A stretch of 64,000 nt of DNA from Albula goreensis (Eukaryota > Chordata > Actinopteri > Albuliformes > Albulidae): the NCBI GenBank assembly GCA_022829145.1, contig CM040758.1:25858575-25922574 (forward strand), in the 5' to 3' direction. Numbering within the stretch: position 1 is the first letter of the stretch; each line of letters opens with the position of its first letter. Below are positions 11,012 to 59,884 of this stretch, piece by piece. A program made the translations under genes and the position numbers. The notes under the pieces were generated by a model, which saw only the letters and a list, made by a program, of their open reading frames with translations, made no database searches and was not told where the DNA came from.

Positions 11012-12043
11012 TTACATTCTATATCCAATTCCCCTTAAACCCTGCATTTGCCCCTGATGCCATTCCACCCGGCCCTGTCCAGCACCTATACCTGCTGACA
11101 TTCCTGTGCCTAACCCTGCAGTTTCCTCCACCACAAACCCTGCATTTGCCTCAAATGCTATTCCATCTGGCCCTATCCTTGCACCTATACCTGCCCTTAC
11201 ACCTGCTCTCATTCCCATGCCTGACCCTGAATTAACCTCCAACGCAAGCCCTGCATTTGCCCCAAATGCTATTCCACCTGGCCCTATCTCTGTTGTTACG
11301 CTAGCCCCTGCCCTCAACCGTACACCTGCCCCTGCCCTCAACTGTACACCTGCCCCTGTCCTCAACTGTACACCTGCACCTTCCTCTTCTCTTAGTCTCA
11401 TTCTATCTTCCTGTTCTTGCCTCCTTTGTAATCTCCACCTTGGATTTCCCTCTTGACTCATGGTTTCCGTGTAGTAGCCATTCCTCTGTGCCATGTTTTC
11501 GATCTTCCTCAGTAGCTCCTCCACCTGCTGCTGGTCTCTGCTGTTGTTGTTGAAGACGTGGTACCTGTTCCCACACCGTTGGACGAGCTGTCGGAGCTGA
11601 TGGTCCCCATCTATGATGAAGTCCTCGATGGGCCCCCTCAGCATGTCTCCCCAGGTGAACAGCAGTATGGTGTAGTTCCGGGCATTCGCTCCGAAGGTCT
11701 CCTCGATCACGTCCATGGCCCTCCTCTCCGCCTCTGTGAAGCGGCCCAGTTGCACCACCAGGAGGAAGGCATGGGGCCCCTGAGCCAGCAGGGACATACT
11801 CCTCCCCAGCTCCCAACAAGCTGCACTGGGGCTCATCTCACCATCAAACAGCCCTGGAGTGTCCACCACTTCCACGGCTCTTCCAGAAACCATCCCGAAC
11901 GCCCTCTCACACTCAACAGTGACTGCTCTGGCTCTGAATGCAGACATAAAGGCCTCTCGGCCCAGGATGGTGTTTCCGGAGGCACTCTTCCCTGATCCCG
12001 TCTTCCCCAGGATCATCACCCTCAAATCTGCTCTTCCTGCCAT
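11012..12043 (-). CDS. GIMAP/AIG1-family GTPase with repetitive glycine-rich C-terminus
   Basis: 343-residue open frame in one coding exon. A splice acceptor (CTCTGCAG) lies about 13 bases before the ATG, so a non-coding 5' exon is likely. The AIG1-type G domain shows G1 GKTGSGKSASGNTIL (from residue 13), G3 DTPG (61-64), the conserved AIG1 box (FLLVVQLGRFTEAERRA), a G4-like FTWGD and G5-like RYHVFNN. Family members are immune-cell GTPases that assemble on intracellular membranes and influence lymphocyte survival. After a charged linker (QRRQEQEDRMRLREEE) the tail holds short GAGVQLRA repeats and a longer unit with IGP(G/D)GIAF.ANAG. No transmembrane segment is obvious. A third copy of the long unit is out of frame at the end, one base shorter than its sister copies, so the natural C-terminus may differ from the one read here. 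Which GIMAP subfamily it belongs to cannot be decided by eye. Confidence 0.9.
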   Translation of the reverse strand: MAGRADLRVMILGKTGSGKSASGNTILGREAFMSAFRARAVTVECERAFGMVSGRAVEVVDTPGLFDGEMSPSAACWELGRSMSLLAQGPHAFLLVVQLGRFTEAERRAMDVIEETFGANARNYTILLFTWGDMLRGPIEDFIIDGDHQLRQLVQRCGNRYHVFNNNSRDQQQVEELLRKIENMAQRNGYYTETMSQEGNPRWRLQRRQEQEDRMRLREEEGAGVQLRTGAGVQLRAGAGVRLRAGASVTTEIGPGGIAFGANAGLALEVNSGSGMGMRAGVRAGIGARIGPDGIAFEANAGFVVEETAGLGTGMSAGIGAGQGRVEWHQGQMQGLRGIGYRM

Positions 12044-12568
12044 TATGGGTCTGAACTGCAGAGCAGAAAAACATTCTCATGAGCAGCTTTACAGATATCG
12101 TATTTTAGATATACTCTCATAGTGTCCTGCAAGAATTATGCGCTCTTTAGGGGGTTTTACCATCCAAGGCTTTTTAGAAATTATCTGCAGGCACTCCCTT
12201 GTCAGTTTTTCACTTCATCATTTGGCATGCCGAAAAATACAAGAAAACACAAGTAAGTAAAACTATGGCAAGTTTCACTCATCATAGTTCGGATTTTCTC
12301 TGAAACTTTCATCAGTCATTTTTAATGGTCAAAGTTTAATGCATCAGTTGACAAAATGCATAACTAGTTGGTCTGAAGCTGGAGAAACCACAATGAGGTC
12401 TGTGCACTCAAAAGAAAAACATACTAGTGAAAAAAGGAGTATGTAGAAACCACAGCAATATACCAATTTTACTGTAATTTCAATTAGATACAGTTAGTTT
12501 TACTATGGTGTATGTTTAAAGTTGTTCACCTTTTAAAACTTACACAACCTGTAACCGGTATCTCCCTG

Positions 12569-51493: not shown

Positions 51494-52703
51494 ATGGAGA
51501 AAACAGAGAGCGATTTAATTGTTGAAGTGTTGGATGATCTCTCGGAGGAGCAATTAGACAAATTTAAACACAAATTGAGTGAACTAAAGAAAATCGGTTA
51601 TGGTGTGATCGAGAAAAAGTCGAATGTGTTTGTCGCTTCAAAGATAATAAGTAAATTCACGAAGAAAGGCGCCATTCCGTGCACCGCCGACGTGTTAAGA
51701 GCCATCGGTGAAGCCGATAAAGCAGAAGAATTAGAAAAAGAATCGAATACCTGTAAGTAGCTGAAGGTATGTCAACTAAAAACATGGTTACATTTTTCTT
51801 TGTTGTCTTTTGTTTTAAGGAAGTATGCAACAGATTGAGATACTTTCGGTTTCCTTTTCCGTGAAAGGGCGCAACTTAACTTTTGTCTAACTTATATAAA
51901 CCCTTTATTTTACAATAAAGGTAATTTATAGAAATGTATAGGTAATGAAAGTAGTTGCTTAATTTTTATTCGACCGTTTGTCTGAAAAAGCACCGCATGA
52001 TGCAAACAGTGCAAACGATTGCCTCCTCCGTTTCAGGTCAGGGAGCCTCGAGCGCGACGGGACCGAACAGGGGAGCCAGTGCAGCCGGCATGGGGGACCC
52101 TGGAGAACGCGCGCCGAGCCCCAACTATGAGCTAGAGGACGGTCAGTGTGAAGGCTCCCTGAACGGGAAAACATCCCTGAAACTCTTACAATGTCAGACC
52201 ACTATCTAACTATTTTTTAAAAGATAATCGCACATCTCACATTGGCCGTAGGTCTGAACACGTCACCACACGCTATACAGTAACAGTAAAATTGAACTTA
52301 ATCTCAACAAATACTTTGGCAAAAAATCTCAGAGGGCGCATTCACCATTAACTTTAAATGTGAGAGTGATAATTATTATGTTTAACAGCTAACCTGCTCT
52401 TATGAATGCAGTCTACTTAAGCTTGAAATACAAAGGTGTCCGAATTTGGCAAACTTATATGATATCTGTTTATGTCTCTCAACAGGCCAACATTTCGTGG
52501 ACAAGCACCAAGTTGCCCTGATTGAAAGGGTCACACTGGTGGAACCCATTCTCGACCGCTTTTTGGAAGGGAATTTTATCAGTCGCGAGGCTTACAAGAA
52601 CATCCAAGTCTTACAAACATCAATTGCCCAAATGAGAAAGCTTCTACATGACGTTGTTTTCCCAGGAGGCAAGGTGTTCAAAACGAGCTCTGCAAGATTT
52701 TAG
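51494..52703 (+). CDS. pycard: ASC/PYCARD inflammasome adaptor (PYD-CARD), frameshifted near the end
   Basis: Three exons: 51494-51752 (PYD), 52037-52141 (linker) and 52486-52703 (CARD). All introns are GT-AG with phase 1 joins, giving 193 aa as read. The PYD (residues 1 to about 86; LIVEVLDDLSEEQLDKFKHK, CTADVLRAIGEADKAEELEK) nucleates filaments with NLR sensors. The linker is GASSATGPNRGASAAG and acidic residues. The CARD (FVDKHQVALIERVTLVEPIL, FISREAYKNIQVL) recruits caspase-1. The reading frame stops at TAG 52701-52703, but in the next frame it continues ELCKILENQQPYLMKELKEK to TAA 52745-52747, exactly where the last CARD helix belongs. One base is missing near the A run 52680-52683. Family length (about 200 aa) fits the unshifted reading. 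Whether the shift is real or a sequencing error cannot be told here. Confidence 0.93.
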
Positions 52704-52747
52704 AGAACCAGCAGCCATACCTCATGAAGGAACTGAAAGAGAAATAA

Positions 52748-53790
52748 AGGGTGCCGTCTATGGGTTAGGGCAGCCTTAAGTAGGCATGTGAGGCAGGCAT
52801 CGTTGTGTGCTGGGGCGCGACTGGGTGGCTGTCTCTTTCTCCACTGTAGTTTTTTCACGATGATTAGATCTGAGCGCTCTGGGTAGATTTGCTGATCTCA
52901 ACGTAATCATCAAGGAAGTGCTGACGTCTGAGAGCGCCCAGGTTTGATCAGTGTGAATGTGTCTCCATTCAGCAGATGCTCCTATCCAGAGCAACTTGAC
53001 AGTTTACAAATTTTACACTATCCATATATACAGCTTCATATTTATCAAAGAAAGGTCGGTGGAGAACCTCAACACTGACTTAGCTGGGAACTGAACCTGT
53101 AACTTCTTCATTGCAAGACCTAATCATTGTGCCATATCGCGGACCCTAAGGGGTATAACAACAGTGCCATAGCTTGAAATTGAACCAGTGAACTCTTCAT
53201 TTTAAGACCAGCTCTCTAACCATCGTACTACTCCGCCCCTCTTGGCCAAAGACTGACTGTCTCTCGATTGTCAAGTGCCTTCTTGGCATGCCTACTTTGC
53301 TGATGCCTAATCCGGTCGTGCTGTGGAGAGCGAAGATAAAACTGAAGCTAAATCCCCCCTACAGCTTCAGTTTAGAGCTGGGCTGGGCAATGAAATGTGA
53401 CTCTTTATCAGATTTCATTGTGAGAATATCATGATCATATTTAGATTTTTTTTTTTTTGTGATATCCACTTTGTTGCTTAATGTCATTTTAACAAACAGA
53501 ACTTTTACCTTTATCTTCCTCTCAAAATGAGTTCTAGAGCAGTTTCAGGTTGAATTACATTTCAGGGTATATAGACTCATAGATTCATCAATATGCAACT
53601 ATGAAAAACAGCCATAATTAATATTCAGAATAGCTGGAATTTTTTTTGCATGCTGAGACATAAATCATGAAATATTTTTACATTAGGAAAGCCTCAACTA
53701 ATTACTCTCTTCTTAAAAGCTATCGTTCCTTTTTCTTTATGATAATCTATGCACTTAGTATATGCATTGACTCATATTTACGTGTGTAAA
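52748..53790. other. pycard 3' flank with SINE-like pieces
   Basis: 52966-53000 has the dispersed fish motif CAGATGCTCCTATCCAGAGC. 53080-53240 has two minus-strand tRNA-like heads (complement GTTAGAGAGCTGGTC and GGTTCAATTTC). AATAAA at 52743-52748 overlaps the unshifted pycard stop and may be its poly(A) signal. Confidence 0.5.
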
Positions 53791-54000
53791 TATATATGTT
53801 CATATATCTTATCACTACCTCAGTTGACAGGTTAGTATGCCAGTTTACAGCGCTTGACATTCACTAATTAATGGACCAGGTCTGGTGACAGCTGGAAAGT
53901 CAGAAATGGTCAGTACAGCAAACGTTTCACCAGGACAGAGTGACTGCCAGGTACTGGGTCCTGATTCACATCCACCTACAGCAGGGAAAGTTAGAGTGTT
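53790..54000 (+). repeat. Left copy of the segmental duplication flank (after pycard)
   Basis: GTTAGTATGCCAGTTTACAG CGCTTGACATTCACT and following sequence recur at 59132-59260 after the PYD-only gene, marking the downstream part of the tandem duplication. Confidence 0.85.
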
Positions 54001-54204
54001 CCAGACTCGAGGAGAATTTTAATTTTTTATGCCTCATCATTTTTGGGTGTTGTTGGTTTTTGTTTTTTTTTTAATCTGGGAATGTATTGCTGTTTTTTAT
54101 TGTAAAAAAGGGAGTGACGCTTGATATAAAAATATGACGTTTTAAATGTATTTTAATCTTACACATTGATGCTGATTTTCAGTGTAGGCAACGTTAATGG
54201 GGCA

Positions 54205-56427: not shown

Positions 56428-58974
56428 ATGGGAAAAACTGTGAGTGACCTCATCATTCAGGCACTGGAGAATCTCTCTAGCAATGGATTAGACAGATTTA
56501 AACGTAAACTGAGTGAACTGAAGGAAATCGGATATGGTCGAACTGAAAAAGAGACTATTGCGGGTATTGCCGAGCTCATAATTGGTAAATTCACGAAGAG
56601 CAAAGCTATCGCCTGCACTGCCGACGTGTTACGGGCGATTGAACAAGAGGATAAAGCGAAAGACTTAGAAGACAAAGCTGCAATTACTTGTAAGTAATTA
56701 CATTAGGCAAAAATACAACAACGTAGGGTGCCTCGCATTGTAGAAGTGATTGTTGAAAACGCAGTTAAACTTTTCTTTGAGTTAAACATCATTGTGATTC
56801 CCTTGAAACACCGTCCTAAAACTGCAAATCCTTGATGGACCATATTTTCATGCTTTCAAGATGTCTTTCATCGGTTTTATGTCACATGTTATATGCTGAA
56901 TGTGAACAAGTGTGTTGTACAAATGGAAATTCAGAAACTAATTATGATCTGATGATGGCTAATTTTTCAAAGTAAGACACCAACAGGCTGTAGTTTGTTC
57001 CAGTATATACATTGTTTTTCAGCAAAAAAGTTAATGTTTTCTATATTCACATGTATCATTAATACATGACACCATCATTGTGATTTAGATTATAAACATT
57101 TTGACTTCCAAGCATGACTTTGTAATGTAATACATGTAATAATACACATAATAATGGACATGGAGCAGTGGTAACTAACAATTGCAGAGTAGGGATGACA
57201 GGAACAATGAGTTTTATTGAAATTTTCCAGAAAACAAGTCTCATGGTAGGTGGACAGTTGGGGTCAGAACTGGGAGATCAATACACAAACAATCCGATAT
57301 GGCAGGCAAAGAGTAGTCTAGAAACAGGCAGGAATTCAGCAACAAAACGGCCTGCAAGACAAGCAATCCGAATCAGCAGGCAAAAAGTTGTAGTAGAAGG
57401 CAAGCAAGGGTTCTGTAACACAAATACAAGGACAGGGATTTCAGGCAGGTGTGAGAAAGAACAAAACTGAAACAAACTGGCAGCAAACAAAGGAACAGGC
57501 AGGATTTGAATACACAGTGAGGAAATGCAGAGCAGGGGCCTCATTTATTAAACTTTGCGTACTTTCGTGCCTAAATAGTTTGTACGCCAAAACCTACGAG
57601 GTTGCGTACGCAAAGTTTAATAAATGAGGCCCCAGGTGAGCAGGCAGGCAGGTGAAACTGAGCAGGTGATATACAGTGGCAGGTAATGAGGAAGGCAGGG
57701 CAGGAACATGAGGACTCTGAAAACAACATGGCAGATACATGACAGAAAAACAAAAACCAAACACAGTGAGCCATAGTGGTCATCGTTTTTGGGAGCCAAA
57801 GTAATATAAATTGAAATTGCAGTGGCAGGTAATCATGAAGGCGGGGCAGGAACAAGTTACACAAGTTCAAAATAGATTTCACCTACCCAGGTGTGTGCAT
57901 TAGCTTTTAACAATAAGCCAACAATGACAACAGGAAAGGTTCTTTCAGTTTCTTTAAGTTTTGCTGGCACTTATATCAAGTTTAAGACCATTAATCATCA
58001 ACAGGAAGCACCCAAAGATGCAAACAACAGCCTGTTCTGTTTCAGTTCGCGGAGTGTTGGACACGACGGGAGCGAGTGGGGGCGCGACACGAGGTGCTAG
58101 CGCGGCTGAGATGGAGGACACCAGAGATAGTGCCTTATCCTACCCCTACGAGCCGGATGAAGGTCAGTATGAAAGTTCCACACCTGAGTGCGAAAACCCA
58201 CCTGAAACTCTTACAGTCACAGGTCAATCTTTTAACTAAGACAGTGGCCAGAATTATCAAAGCCTCGATAAACTGTTAAACTTTTTGCACGTGTAATTTC
58301 AGCGACATGTTTTGTGATTAGAGCGAACAAACGACCTTCAACTAATCAAATGCTTTCTCACATTTTGTTGCACCTGCAAAACGGTTTTGCTCATACTAGA
58401 CGCTTCAGTAAACCAGGCCCTAAATCGCTGAAAGGGCATACAGTGTGCACTTTGATCAGAGCAGAAATAAGTCTCTTTGTGAGGCTTTGGTGATTCTGTT
58501 TTACAATAAAAAAGACACATTCCAAATGGCATGCTCACTTGTCTCTGATAAAATAGAAATTACTCAAGGAAGCATGTTGGAAAGTCTGTCCTGAATGACT
58601 TGCATACACCCCTTAAAGAGACTTAGCATGTTTGATTGACTCCTGGCCAGAATCTTTATTCTCACACCACATTGGCCGACACACAGCATCGTATGGAATC
58701 CTGTGTCAGTGCTGTTCTGCGCTCTCTGATCGAGCACTTAGGCGCCTACTCAAAGAGCATCCACGCTTCATTGTGTATTTAAACGTAAGAGTTACAGTGA
58801 AGGCTCAACAGCTAACCTGCTGTTCCAAATTCAGCCCACTTAAGCTATGAATCTTAAGGTTTCTATACAACATAAACGGCTAACTTATACAATACCTGTG
58901 TATGTCTCTTTACAGACTATTTTATGGAGACGTCCTCAGTTGGAACGGATGAGTCGAATCCTGACTTGAAATGA
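56428..58974 (+). CDS. PYD-only protein, CARD-less tandem paralogue of ASC
   Basis: Three exons: 56428-56689 (PYD), 58046-58162 (linker) and 58916-58974 (tail), joined in phase 1 as in pycard, giving 145 aa. The PYD (SDLIIQALENLSSNGLDRFK, EIGYGRTEKETIAG, CTADVLRAIEQEDKAKDLED) is close to the neighbouring ASC PYD, and the linker keeps GASAAEMEDTRD and an acidic end. Exon 3 starts at a splice site homologous to the CARD exon's (TATGTCTCTTTACAG against TATGTCTCTCAACAG) but encodes only DYFMETSSVGTDESNPDLK and stops. No CARD remnant follows; the duplicated 3' flank resumes about 210 bases later instead of 1.3 kb. So a deletion removed the CARD and the frame closed neatly. By analogy with mammalian POP proteins it could block inflammasome filaments; that is inference. 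All splice sites and the frame are intact, so it is probably functional. Confidence 0.85.
57170..57880. mobile_element. Unclassified transposon-like insertion in intron 1 of the PYD-only gene
   Basis: Sequence rich in GGCAGGCA and CAGGCAGGTG motifs with repeated CAGTGGCAGGTAATGAGG / CAGTGGCAGGTAATCATG. It explains why this intron is 1.36 kb against 0.28 kb in pycard. No coding capacity. Confidence 0.45.
57535..57633. repeat. Foldback element with 28-bp perfect inverted arms
   Basis: Left arm 57535-57562 starts GGGGCCTCATTTATTAAACT and the right arm 57606-57633 is its exact reverse complement. A 43-base loop separates them. It would form a long hairpin and looks like a small MITE. Confidence 0.9.
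58163..58915. other. Intron 2 of the PYD-only gene
   Basis: The last 110 bases align with the end of pycard intron 2 (CAGCTAACCTGCT, CTTAAGC, TTATATGATA/TTATACAATA). The rest is not recognised. Confidence 0.6.
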
Positions 58975-59094
58975 ACTCTGACACATCTATGAGAGCTGAA
59001 CAATTTTGGGGTTTGATATCCTGGTATAGATTTACTTAATTCTCCCTCATTTTCTATCTATGTTCAAACTTTATGACTGTATAGGAATGTTTTT

Positions 59095-59660
59095 TTTTCT
59101 TTGTCTGTGCATATATTTCATCACTGCCTCAGCTGACAGGTTAGTATGCCAGTTTACAGCGCTTGACATTCACTCTGAATGGACCAGGTCTGGTGACAGC
59201 TGGAAAGTCTGATATAGTCAGTACAGCAGACGTTTCATCAGGACAGAGTCAGTGCCAGGTACATCACATTACATTACATTACATTACATCACATTACATC
59301 ACATCACATCACATCACATCACATCACATCACATTACGGGCATTTGTTAGACGCTCTTATCCAGAGCGACTTACAAGGCAAAGTGCATAAGAACAGTACA
59401 AAAAGTGCGAAGATAAACCTAGAGAGGGGTAAAGTCCCGAGTGCCAAGGTGATCGAATAGATCAGGACTCCCCTAGAGACTACAGACTTACTAAACAGCC
59501 TAGTTAAAAACAATCTCAAATTAAGAGCATAGTTTAAAAAACAATCACAGATAAGTGCAAATAGGAATAGACACATTACAAAGAGCAGGGGAGGGGAGAG
59601 GTGCAGCCTGAAGAGGTGAGTCAGGTACAGAATCCTGATTCATGTCTATCTGCAGCAGGG
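59095..59660 (+). repeat. Right copy of the duplication flank, interrupted by a dispersed fish repeat
   Basis: 59132-59260 matches 53827-53955 (GTTAGTATGCCAGTTTACAG, then CTGGTGACAGCTGGAAAGTC). The match resumes at about 59617 (CAGGTACAGAATCCTGATTC, GCAGCAGGGAAAGTTAGAG). Between them lies (CATTA)n/(CATCA)n and an element with CTCTTATCCAGAGCGACTTA, inserted after the duplication. Confidence 0.8.
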
Positions 59661-59884
59661 AAAGTTAGAGGGATCCATTTCTGTGTTATGCACTGCGTTT
59701 GTTTCTCACTGAACAGATGCGTGATTAGGAATCAGTACCCCAGTGAGGGGTTATTTTTGGTATATCCATAGAGCTGTAGTCTTATATCTGTCTCCTCAGC
59801 AGACGCGTCAGTCACCCAAACCACAAAGGTCTGTTTGGTATTCAAGGCTCATCGTTTTTGGGTTTTATTTCTTTATTTTTTAAA

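What the first reader, a model, noticed from the sequence alone, without database searches (positions are those of the whole stretch)
56428..58974. A PYD-only gene made by tandem duplication of ASC, with the CARD exon replaced by a short tail
The gene keeps the exon layout, intron phases and PYD and linker sequence of the adjacent pycard, and the duplicated 3' flank is still recognisable. Its third exon uses the homologous acceptor but codes only 19 residues before a stop. The flank distance shrank from about 1.3 kb to 0.2 kb, so the CARD was removed by deletion. The frame and all splice sites are intact. Mammalian POP1 (PYDC1) is a PYD-only ASC derivative that dampens inflammasomes; this would be an independent fish counterpart. 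In its PYD, the acidic EEQ at residues 18-20 of the neighbour is SNG, while YGR is kept where the neighbour has YGV, so interface charge differs.
Basis: partly seen in the sequence, partly recalled or inferred. Interest (0 to 1): 0.82.

Follow-up and report, generated by a model that had tools for sequence, protein, structure and literature searches.

The report
Bonefish ASC copy lacking its CARD
Bonefishes carry, beside the gene for the inflammasome adaptor ASC, a tandem copy that kept the pyrin domain but lost the caspase-recruiting domain; it looks like a working gene and may act as a brake on inflammasomes, as POP1 does in primates.

Summary
The gene is real. Three exons (56428-56689, 58046-58162, 58916-58974) give a 145-residue protein with one pyrin domain (PYD) and no CARD. 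The window is from a bonefish: its pycard model equals an Albula goreensis protein. A. glossodonta has a full-length counterpart, 145 aa, 92% identical. Between the species 1 of 84 PYD residues differs, against 11 of 61 behind it. Paralogue dN/dS is 0.20, dS near saturation. So the copy is old, shared and constrained. It falls beside bonefish ASC (support 82/76 or 58/71); a clade with human POP1 is rejected: an independent origin.

Corrections: the tail starts with a CARD stub of 8-9 codons; R38 is best read as regained, not kept; G20 is E in the sister species; the 91% flank is too similar to be a passive leftover; the neighbouring pycard is frame-shifted inside its CARD.

Best reading: a POP1-like PYD decoy (0.55), without expression or binding data. 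Beyond the locus, halosaur gene models join an ASC-type PYD, some with the ASC linker, to PRY segments, so this PYD has left the CARD more than once.

The parts
56428..56689 (+). exon 1 of the PYD-only gene (PYD, residues 1-87 and first base of codon 88)
   Evidence: (PF02758, 33.6 bits, cut-off 22.9)
58046..58162 (+). exon 2, ASC-type linker, 117 nt, phase 1-1
58916..58974 (+). exon 3: CARD stub (about 58916-58942) and short tail to TGA
51494..51752 (+). pycard exon 1 (PYD)
52037..52141 (+). pycard exon 2 (linker)
52486..52703 (+). pycard exon 3 (CARD), frame-shifted near 52680; the annotated frame stops at 52703, the usual CARD C-terminus lies in another frame to about 52744
53797..54003 (+). 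3' flank element of pycard
59106..59262 (+). 3' flank element of the copy, first part (91% identical)
59622..59677 (+). 3' flank element of the copy, second part, behind the insert (82%)
59263..59621 (.). insert that splits the flank element; holds a CAT(T/C)A-rich array and an UnaL2-like LINE 3' end
   Evidence: UnaL2 48.6 bits, below gathering 55, E 2.9e-7

Best explanation
A tandem paralogue of ASC in bonefishes lost its CARD when the third exon was cut short, leaving PYD, linker, a CARD stub and a short tail. SHOWN: gene structure, CARD loss, presence in two species, constraint on the PYD, origin independent of POP1. INFERRED: the protein is made, folds as a PYD, binds the PYD of ASC and/or of NLRP sensors, and cannot pass the signal to a CARD caspase. 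It would cap or poison the PYD nucleus and raise the threshold for ASC specks, as POP1 does.
For: 145-aa frame with all splice sites; full-length A. glossodonta counterpart JZ751_011323; 1 of 84 PYD residues changed against 11 of 61 behind it, Fisher one-sided 0.0003 at residue 84, 0.002-0.003 at 85-87; dN/dS 0.20 against pycard; Pfam PYD only; predicted six-helix PYD, tail without structure, best fold matches pyrin and ASC PYDs, chimeric or human POP1 at ranks 6 and 13; no other CARD match in the window (best outside pycard E 0.6). In zebrafish and flounder CARD-deleted ASC still co-localises with NLRP3 (PMC8122782, passages); POP1 blocks ASC nucleation through its PYD (PMC7555848, passages).
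Against: No expression, binding or speck data. A decoy is not the only use of a lone PYD: it might also nucleate ASC. The acidic side of helix 1 that ASC uses is poorer here (2-3 acidic residues against 7 in bonefish ASC), and of the POP1 contact residues named, K21 aligns with D22 while R41 aligns with K41 (alignment). dS is near saturation, so the dN/dS is rough. Constraint between species rests on 12 differences and a cut-point named after the fact. Foldseek E-values are weak (best 0.004).
Confidence: 0.55

Rival explanations
1. A functional lone PYD with a positive role: it nucleates or extends ASC PYD filaments, or joins another PYD protein, rather than blocking.
For: PYD constrained; both charged faces keep residues (E14, E49; R23, K25, R26, K27, K41).
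Against: The known mammalian lone PYDs of ASC type are inhibitors (PMC7555848, passages).
Confidence: 0.22
2. A decaying copy or a gene model without a protein product; conservation is residual.
For: CARD lost; linker and tail change fast (11 of 61); no expression data; the neighbouring pycard model is itself damaged in this assembly.
Against: Intact frame and splice sites in two species, and PYD change concentrated away (1 of 84), although synonymous sites against pycard are near saturation, so the frame has stayed open for long.
Confidence: 0.13
3. The gene continues: exon 2 splices to a further exon (CARD or B30.2) beyond the window, as in halosaur PYD-PRY models, and exon 3 is an alternative end.
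For: Halosaur Aldrovandia affinis has ASC-type PYDs joined to PRY segments; exon 2 is phase 1-1, so it joins easily.
Against: No CARD match outside pycard (best E 0.6) and no PRY match (best E 0.23) anywhere in the window with these queries; the A. glossodonta model, made by another pipeline, ends with the same tail.
Confidence: 0.05
4. ASC function is being split in bonefishes: the lone PYD and a CARD-type product of pycard act as separate parts.
For: A. goreensis pycard is frame-shifted in its CARD and the A. glossodonta pycard model starts behind the PYD exon.
Against: Both may be assembly or annotation faults; the A. goreensis pycard PYD exon is intact, and the A. glossodonta CARD has an intact C-terminus.
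Confidence: 0.05

Closest known systems
POP1 / PYDC1 (primate PYD-only protein 1)
   Same: Lone PYD, derived from ASC, lying near ASC (about 14 kb in human, PMC3775265 passages; about 3.7 kb here from the pycard stop to the copy's ATG), no CARD.
   Different: Independent origin: a clade with POP1 is rejected, p-AU 1.5e-5. 145 aa with linker, CARD stub and tail instead of 89 aa. POP1 is ascribed to exon duplication (PMC7555848, passages); here three exons were kept and the third cut short.
ASC / PYCARD of bonefish and other elopomorphs
   Same: Exon layout, phases, PYD and linker.
   Different: No CARD beyond 8-9 codons.
ASC-type PYD gene models of the halosaur Aldrovandia affinis (P0007-P0011, P0013-P0016) and eel P0018
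   Same: ASC-type PYD without a CARD; six of the nine halosaur proteins (P0007-P0010, P0013, P0014) carry ASC-like linker sequence.
   Different: Five of the nine halosaur proteins match PRY at E <= 0.01, two of them above Pfam's cut-off. A clade of bonefish copies with the halosaur CARD-less rows is rejected at p-AU 0.029; eel P0018 groups with eel ASC (100/100).
Tandem ASC copies of medaka and the ASC expansion of round goby
   Same: ASC duplication in a fish.
   Different: Medaka's three copies all have PYD and CARD (PMC8122782, passages); the 20 goby cases were found as PYD-CARD combinations (PMC6988351, passages), so a CARD-less copy would not have been counted there.

Membership tests
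PYD-only proteins (POPs), by architecture | one PYD and no other domain | tested here: met
   Pfam: PYRIN is the only family above its cut-off; model: six helices, then no structure
PYD-only proteins (POPs), by architecture | protein ends soon after the PYD (about 90 aa) | tested here: not met
   145 aa with linker and tail; unspliced exon 1 alone would give 89 aa
PYDC1 (POP1) orthologue | common origin with primate POP1 | tested here: not met
   clade POP1 + bonefish copies rejected, p-AU 1.5e-5 (18 rows)
POP1-like regulator | derived from, and next to, ASC | tested here: met
   tandem with pycard, shared exons, intron ends and flank; PYD beside bonefish ASC at 82/76 or 58/71, so the PYD tree alone is weak
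POP1-like regulator | basic contact residues (K21, R41 in POP1) for the acidic face of ASC | tested here: inconclusive
   K21 aligns with D22, K22 with R23, R41 with K41 (alignment; residues named)
POP1-like regulator | binds ASC PYD, does not self-polymerise, blocks speck formation | not testable with these tools
   needs protein experiments
ASC / PYCARD | PYD plus CARD | tested here: not met
   no CARD in the protein and no further CARD match in the window
PYD-B30.2 genes as in the halosaur | PRY/SPRY behind the PYD | tested here: not met
   best PRY match in the window E 0.23 (two PRY queries)

The most novel reading that the evidence does not exclude
In elopomorph fishes the ASC PYD with its phase 1-1 linker exon is a portable cassette that has repeatedly left the CARD: a truncated PYD-only copy in bonefishes, PYD-PRY joins in halosaurs, a second lone PYD in eel. 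These would be lineage-specific PYD regulators or sensors feeding into, or holding back, ASC. Primate POPs would then be one case of a recurring evolutionary route.
Probability: 0.35. Interest if true: 0.7.

Novelty: new variant of a known kind. Interest (0 to 1): 0.52.

Why it matters
Two reviews describe PYD-only proteins as confined to higher primates (PMC3775265 and PMC7555848, passages). A constrained CARD-less ASC paralogue with its own origin in bonefishes would show that vertebrates arrive at lone PYDs more than once, and gives a natural test of what a PYD needs in order to act as a brake. The paralogue pair lies side by side in one locus, so gene removal and co-expression tests are simple to frame.

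Tried and rejected
Tried without answer: the window's own genome was asked for PYD genes ten times with the same request; the machine was busy each time, so copy number of PYD genes, and whether the 3' flank element is a dispersed repeat, stay open. Within the window the element has two copies only.

Considered and rejected: common descent with POP1; a CARD or PRY exon further down in the window; the flank as a plain neutral leftover. Tested without result: any match between 58943-59105 and pycard's 52516-53796 beyond a T-run (104 of 300 shuffles as good or better); a match of 58975-59105 to 52700-52900 (253 of 300); an unanchored match of all of exon 3 (201 of 300). The linker dN/dS could not be estimated because its synonymous sites are saturated. 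A clade of the bonefish copies with the eel PYDs is not rejected (p-AU 0.207), so the PYD tree alone does not settle the place of the copy.

Rows dropped: of 28 proteins P0001-P0028, the tree used 20 plus the window copy (P0003, P0019-P0021, P0023-P0025 and P0027 left out: no PYD, near-duplicates, isoforms or truncated); one search also dropped P0028; one search dropped in addition P0005, P0010, P0011, P0013 and P0014 and added three mammalian rows. Support for bonefish copy + bonefish ASC went from 58/71 to 82/76 with that change of rows.

Literature: nine searches of the held open-access library listed no paper on a PYD-only ASC paralogue in a fish, going by titles and the starts of abstracts; subscription papers are mostly not held. 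Papers seen as passages only: PMC10038134, PMC3775265, PMC7555848, PMC9978379, PMC6988351, PMC8122782. Others were seen as search listings only.

Full report
What is there. Pfam finds one PYD above its cut-off (33.6 bits against 22.9) and no CARD; the neighbour matches both PYD and CARD. The neighbour pycard (51494-51752, 52037-52141, 52486 onward) has the same layout with introns of 284 and 344 bp.

Where it is from. The pycard protein read from the window equals, residue for residue, AGOR_G00194090 of Albula goreensis (193 aa), so the window is bonefish DNA. The PYD-only protein found a single relative at E <= 0.001 among 52 candidates: JZ751_011323 of Albula glossodonta, 145 aa, 92% identical over its full length. 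The protein of the preceding locus number, JZ751_011322, carries that species' ASC linker and CARD, and its contig has the same listed length. The second species therefore appears to have the same pair, and a model made in another genome project has the same exon ends and the same tail. That project's annotation used a transcriptome of gill, heart and liver (PMC10038134, passages); I saw no statement about this gene.

Is it constrained? Between the two species 12 residues differ: 1 of the first 84 (PYD) and 11 of the other 61 (Fisher one-sided 0.0003; 0.002-0.003 if the border is set at 85-87). The border was set after looking, and 12 differences are few. For comparison, pycard's linker and CARD differ at 7 of 100 comparable residues (1 of 36 and 6 of 64). 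Against pycard, the PYD codons give dN 0.30, dS 1.47, ratio 0.20 (bootstrap 0-0.40); 5 of 18 four-fold sites are identical. dS is near saturation, so the ratio is rough, but the duplication is clearly old while the frame is still open.

How the CARD was lost. Homology between the loci runs through exon 1, exon 2 with its splice flanks, and the end of intron 2, and stops 27 nt into exon 3 (58942 against 52515). Those 27 nt match at 17 positions with one 3-nt gap (2 of 20,000 shuffles reach this), aligning YFMETSSV with pycard's HFVDKHQV. So the 'tail' starts as a CARD stub. A free local comparison of the whole exon did not reach significance. Nothing is alignable from there to 59106. The distance from acceptor to flank is 190 bp here and 1311 bp in pycard. 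A deletion is the simplest account, but part of the difference may be growth on the pycard side, which holds an UnaL2-like LINE end at 52959-53013 (31.3 bits, below the gathering score of 55) and a 51-bp local duplication.

The flank. 53797-53954 and 59106-59262 are 91% identical, then 82% over 56 bp and 76% over 41 bp. Exons are at 67%, intron ends at 73-76%. A passive leftover of so old a duplication should not be the best-kept part. Constraint on a shared regulatory element (fits the fall-off in identity), gene conversion, or a later event that also set the new 3' end are all open.

Relationships. A profile search gave 27 proteins at E <= 0.01 among the 7,995 best candidates (a capped list). 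A tree of PYDs puts the two copies together (100/99) and beside bonefish ASC at 82/76 in an 18-row set, but only 58/71 in a 20-row set. A clade with human POP1 is rejected (p-AU 1.5e-5), a clade with the halosaur CARD-less rows is rejected at 0.029, and one with the eel PYDs is not rejected (0.207). Gene order, shared intron ends and flank are stronger evidence of tandem origin from ASC than the PYD tree.

How it may work. The model for the A. glossodonta protein has six helices (5-14, 18-30, 36-40, 44-54, 57-70, 74-94) at block means of 74-92 pLDDT up to residue 80, and no structure in the tail. Foldseek ranks pyrin and ASC PYDs first, chimeric POP1 6th and human POP1 (ASC2) 13th, none at E <= 0.001. 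Without a CARD the protein cannot pass a PYD signal to a CARD caspase. In zebrafish and flounder, ASC without its CARD still co-localises with NLRP3 (PMC8122782, passages), so a PYD-only product can be expected to reach the same partners. POP1 binds ASC and stops sensor-induced nucleation (PMC7555848, passages). I take the same for the bonefish protein at 0.55. The charge pattern is only partly POP1-like: R23, K25, R26, K27 and K41 are there, but POP1's K21 aligns with D22, which bonefish ASC shares. Helix 1 and its following loop have 2 or 3 acidic residues against 7 in bonefish ASC, which could weaken self-assembly and favour binding to ASC; that is inference.

A further point on robustness: in both genes exon 1 reads in frame into its own donor site and meets a stop within a few bases, so unspliced RNA would also code for a lone PYD of 89 (copy) or 88 (pycard) residues.

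Wider setting. The halosaur Aldrovandia affinis has, besides three ASC proteins (P0004-P0006), nine listed CARD-less proteins that I scanned (P0007-P0011, P0013-P0016). Five match PRY at E <= 0.01, two of them (P0015, P0016) above Pfam's cut-off. P0007-P0010, P0013 and P0014 carry ASC-like linker sequence; P0015 and P0016 largely do not. Several are marked partial, and their gene models may be incomplete. The eel entry P0018 is an 88-aa lone PYD that groups with eel ASC. So CARD-less ASC-type PYDs are not unique to this locus in elopomorphs, but the bonefish gene is the one with two-species support and a full ASC-like exon layout.

Verdict. Observation confirmed; interpretation partly supported. 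It works, most likely, like POP1, but is not a POP1 orthologue. Not described in the papers that my searches listed, though the A. glossodonta protein is in public databases as a hypothetical protein.

Noticed in passing
window 52486-52747: pycard's CARD frame shifts near 52680; the annotated 193-aa A. goreensis model ends at 52703, while the usual CARD C-terminus lies in another frame. A. glossodonta's CARD model is intact at that end. Real change or assembly fault is open.
   Followed up: partly
P0003 (A. glossodonta JZ751_011322): The A. glossodonta pycard model starts just before exon 2 and lacks the PYD exon; its first residues read as intron in the window, so it may be an annotation fault.
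   Followed up: partly
P0007-P0009, P0015, P0016 (Aldrovandia affinis): ASC-type PYDs joined to PRY segments, three with ASC-like linker; two PRY matches exceed Pfam's cut-off.
   Followed up: partly
window 53797-54003 and 59106-59677: A flank element better kept (91%, then 82%) than the exons of the duplicated genes, split in the copy by an insert.
   Followed up: partly
window 51753-51760 and 56690-56697: In both genes exon 1 runs in frame into its donor site and stops at once, so unspliced RNA codes for a lone PYD.
   Followed up: no
window 57526-57642: Inverted repeat of 37-nt arms (89% complementary, 43 nt apart) in intron 1 of the copy, like a small palindromic transposon.
   Followed up: no
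window 11012-12076, minus strand: Long open frame with an AIG1 (GIMAP-type) GTPase domain (190.6 bits).
   Followed up: no
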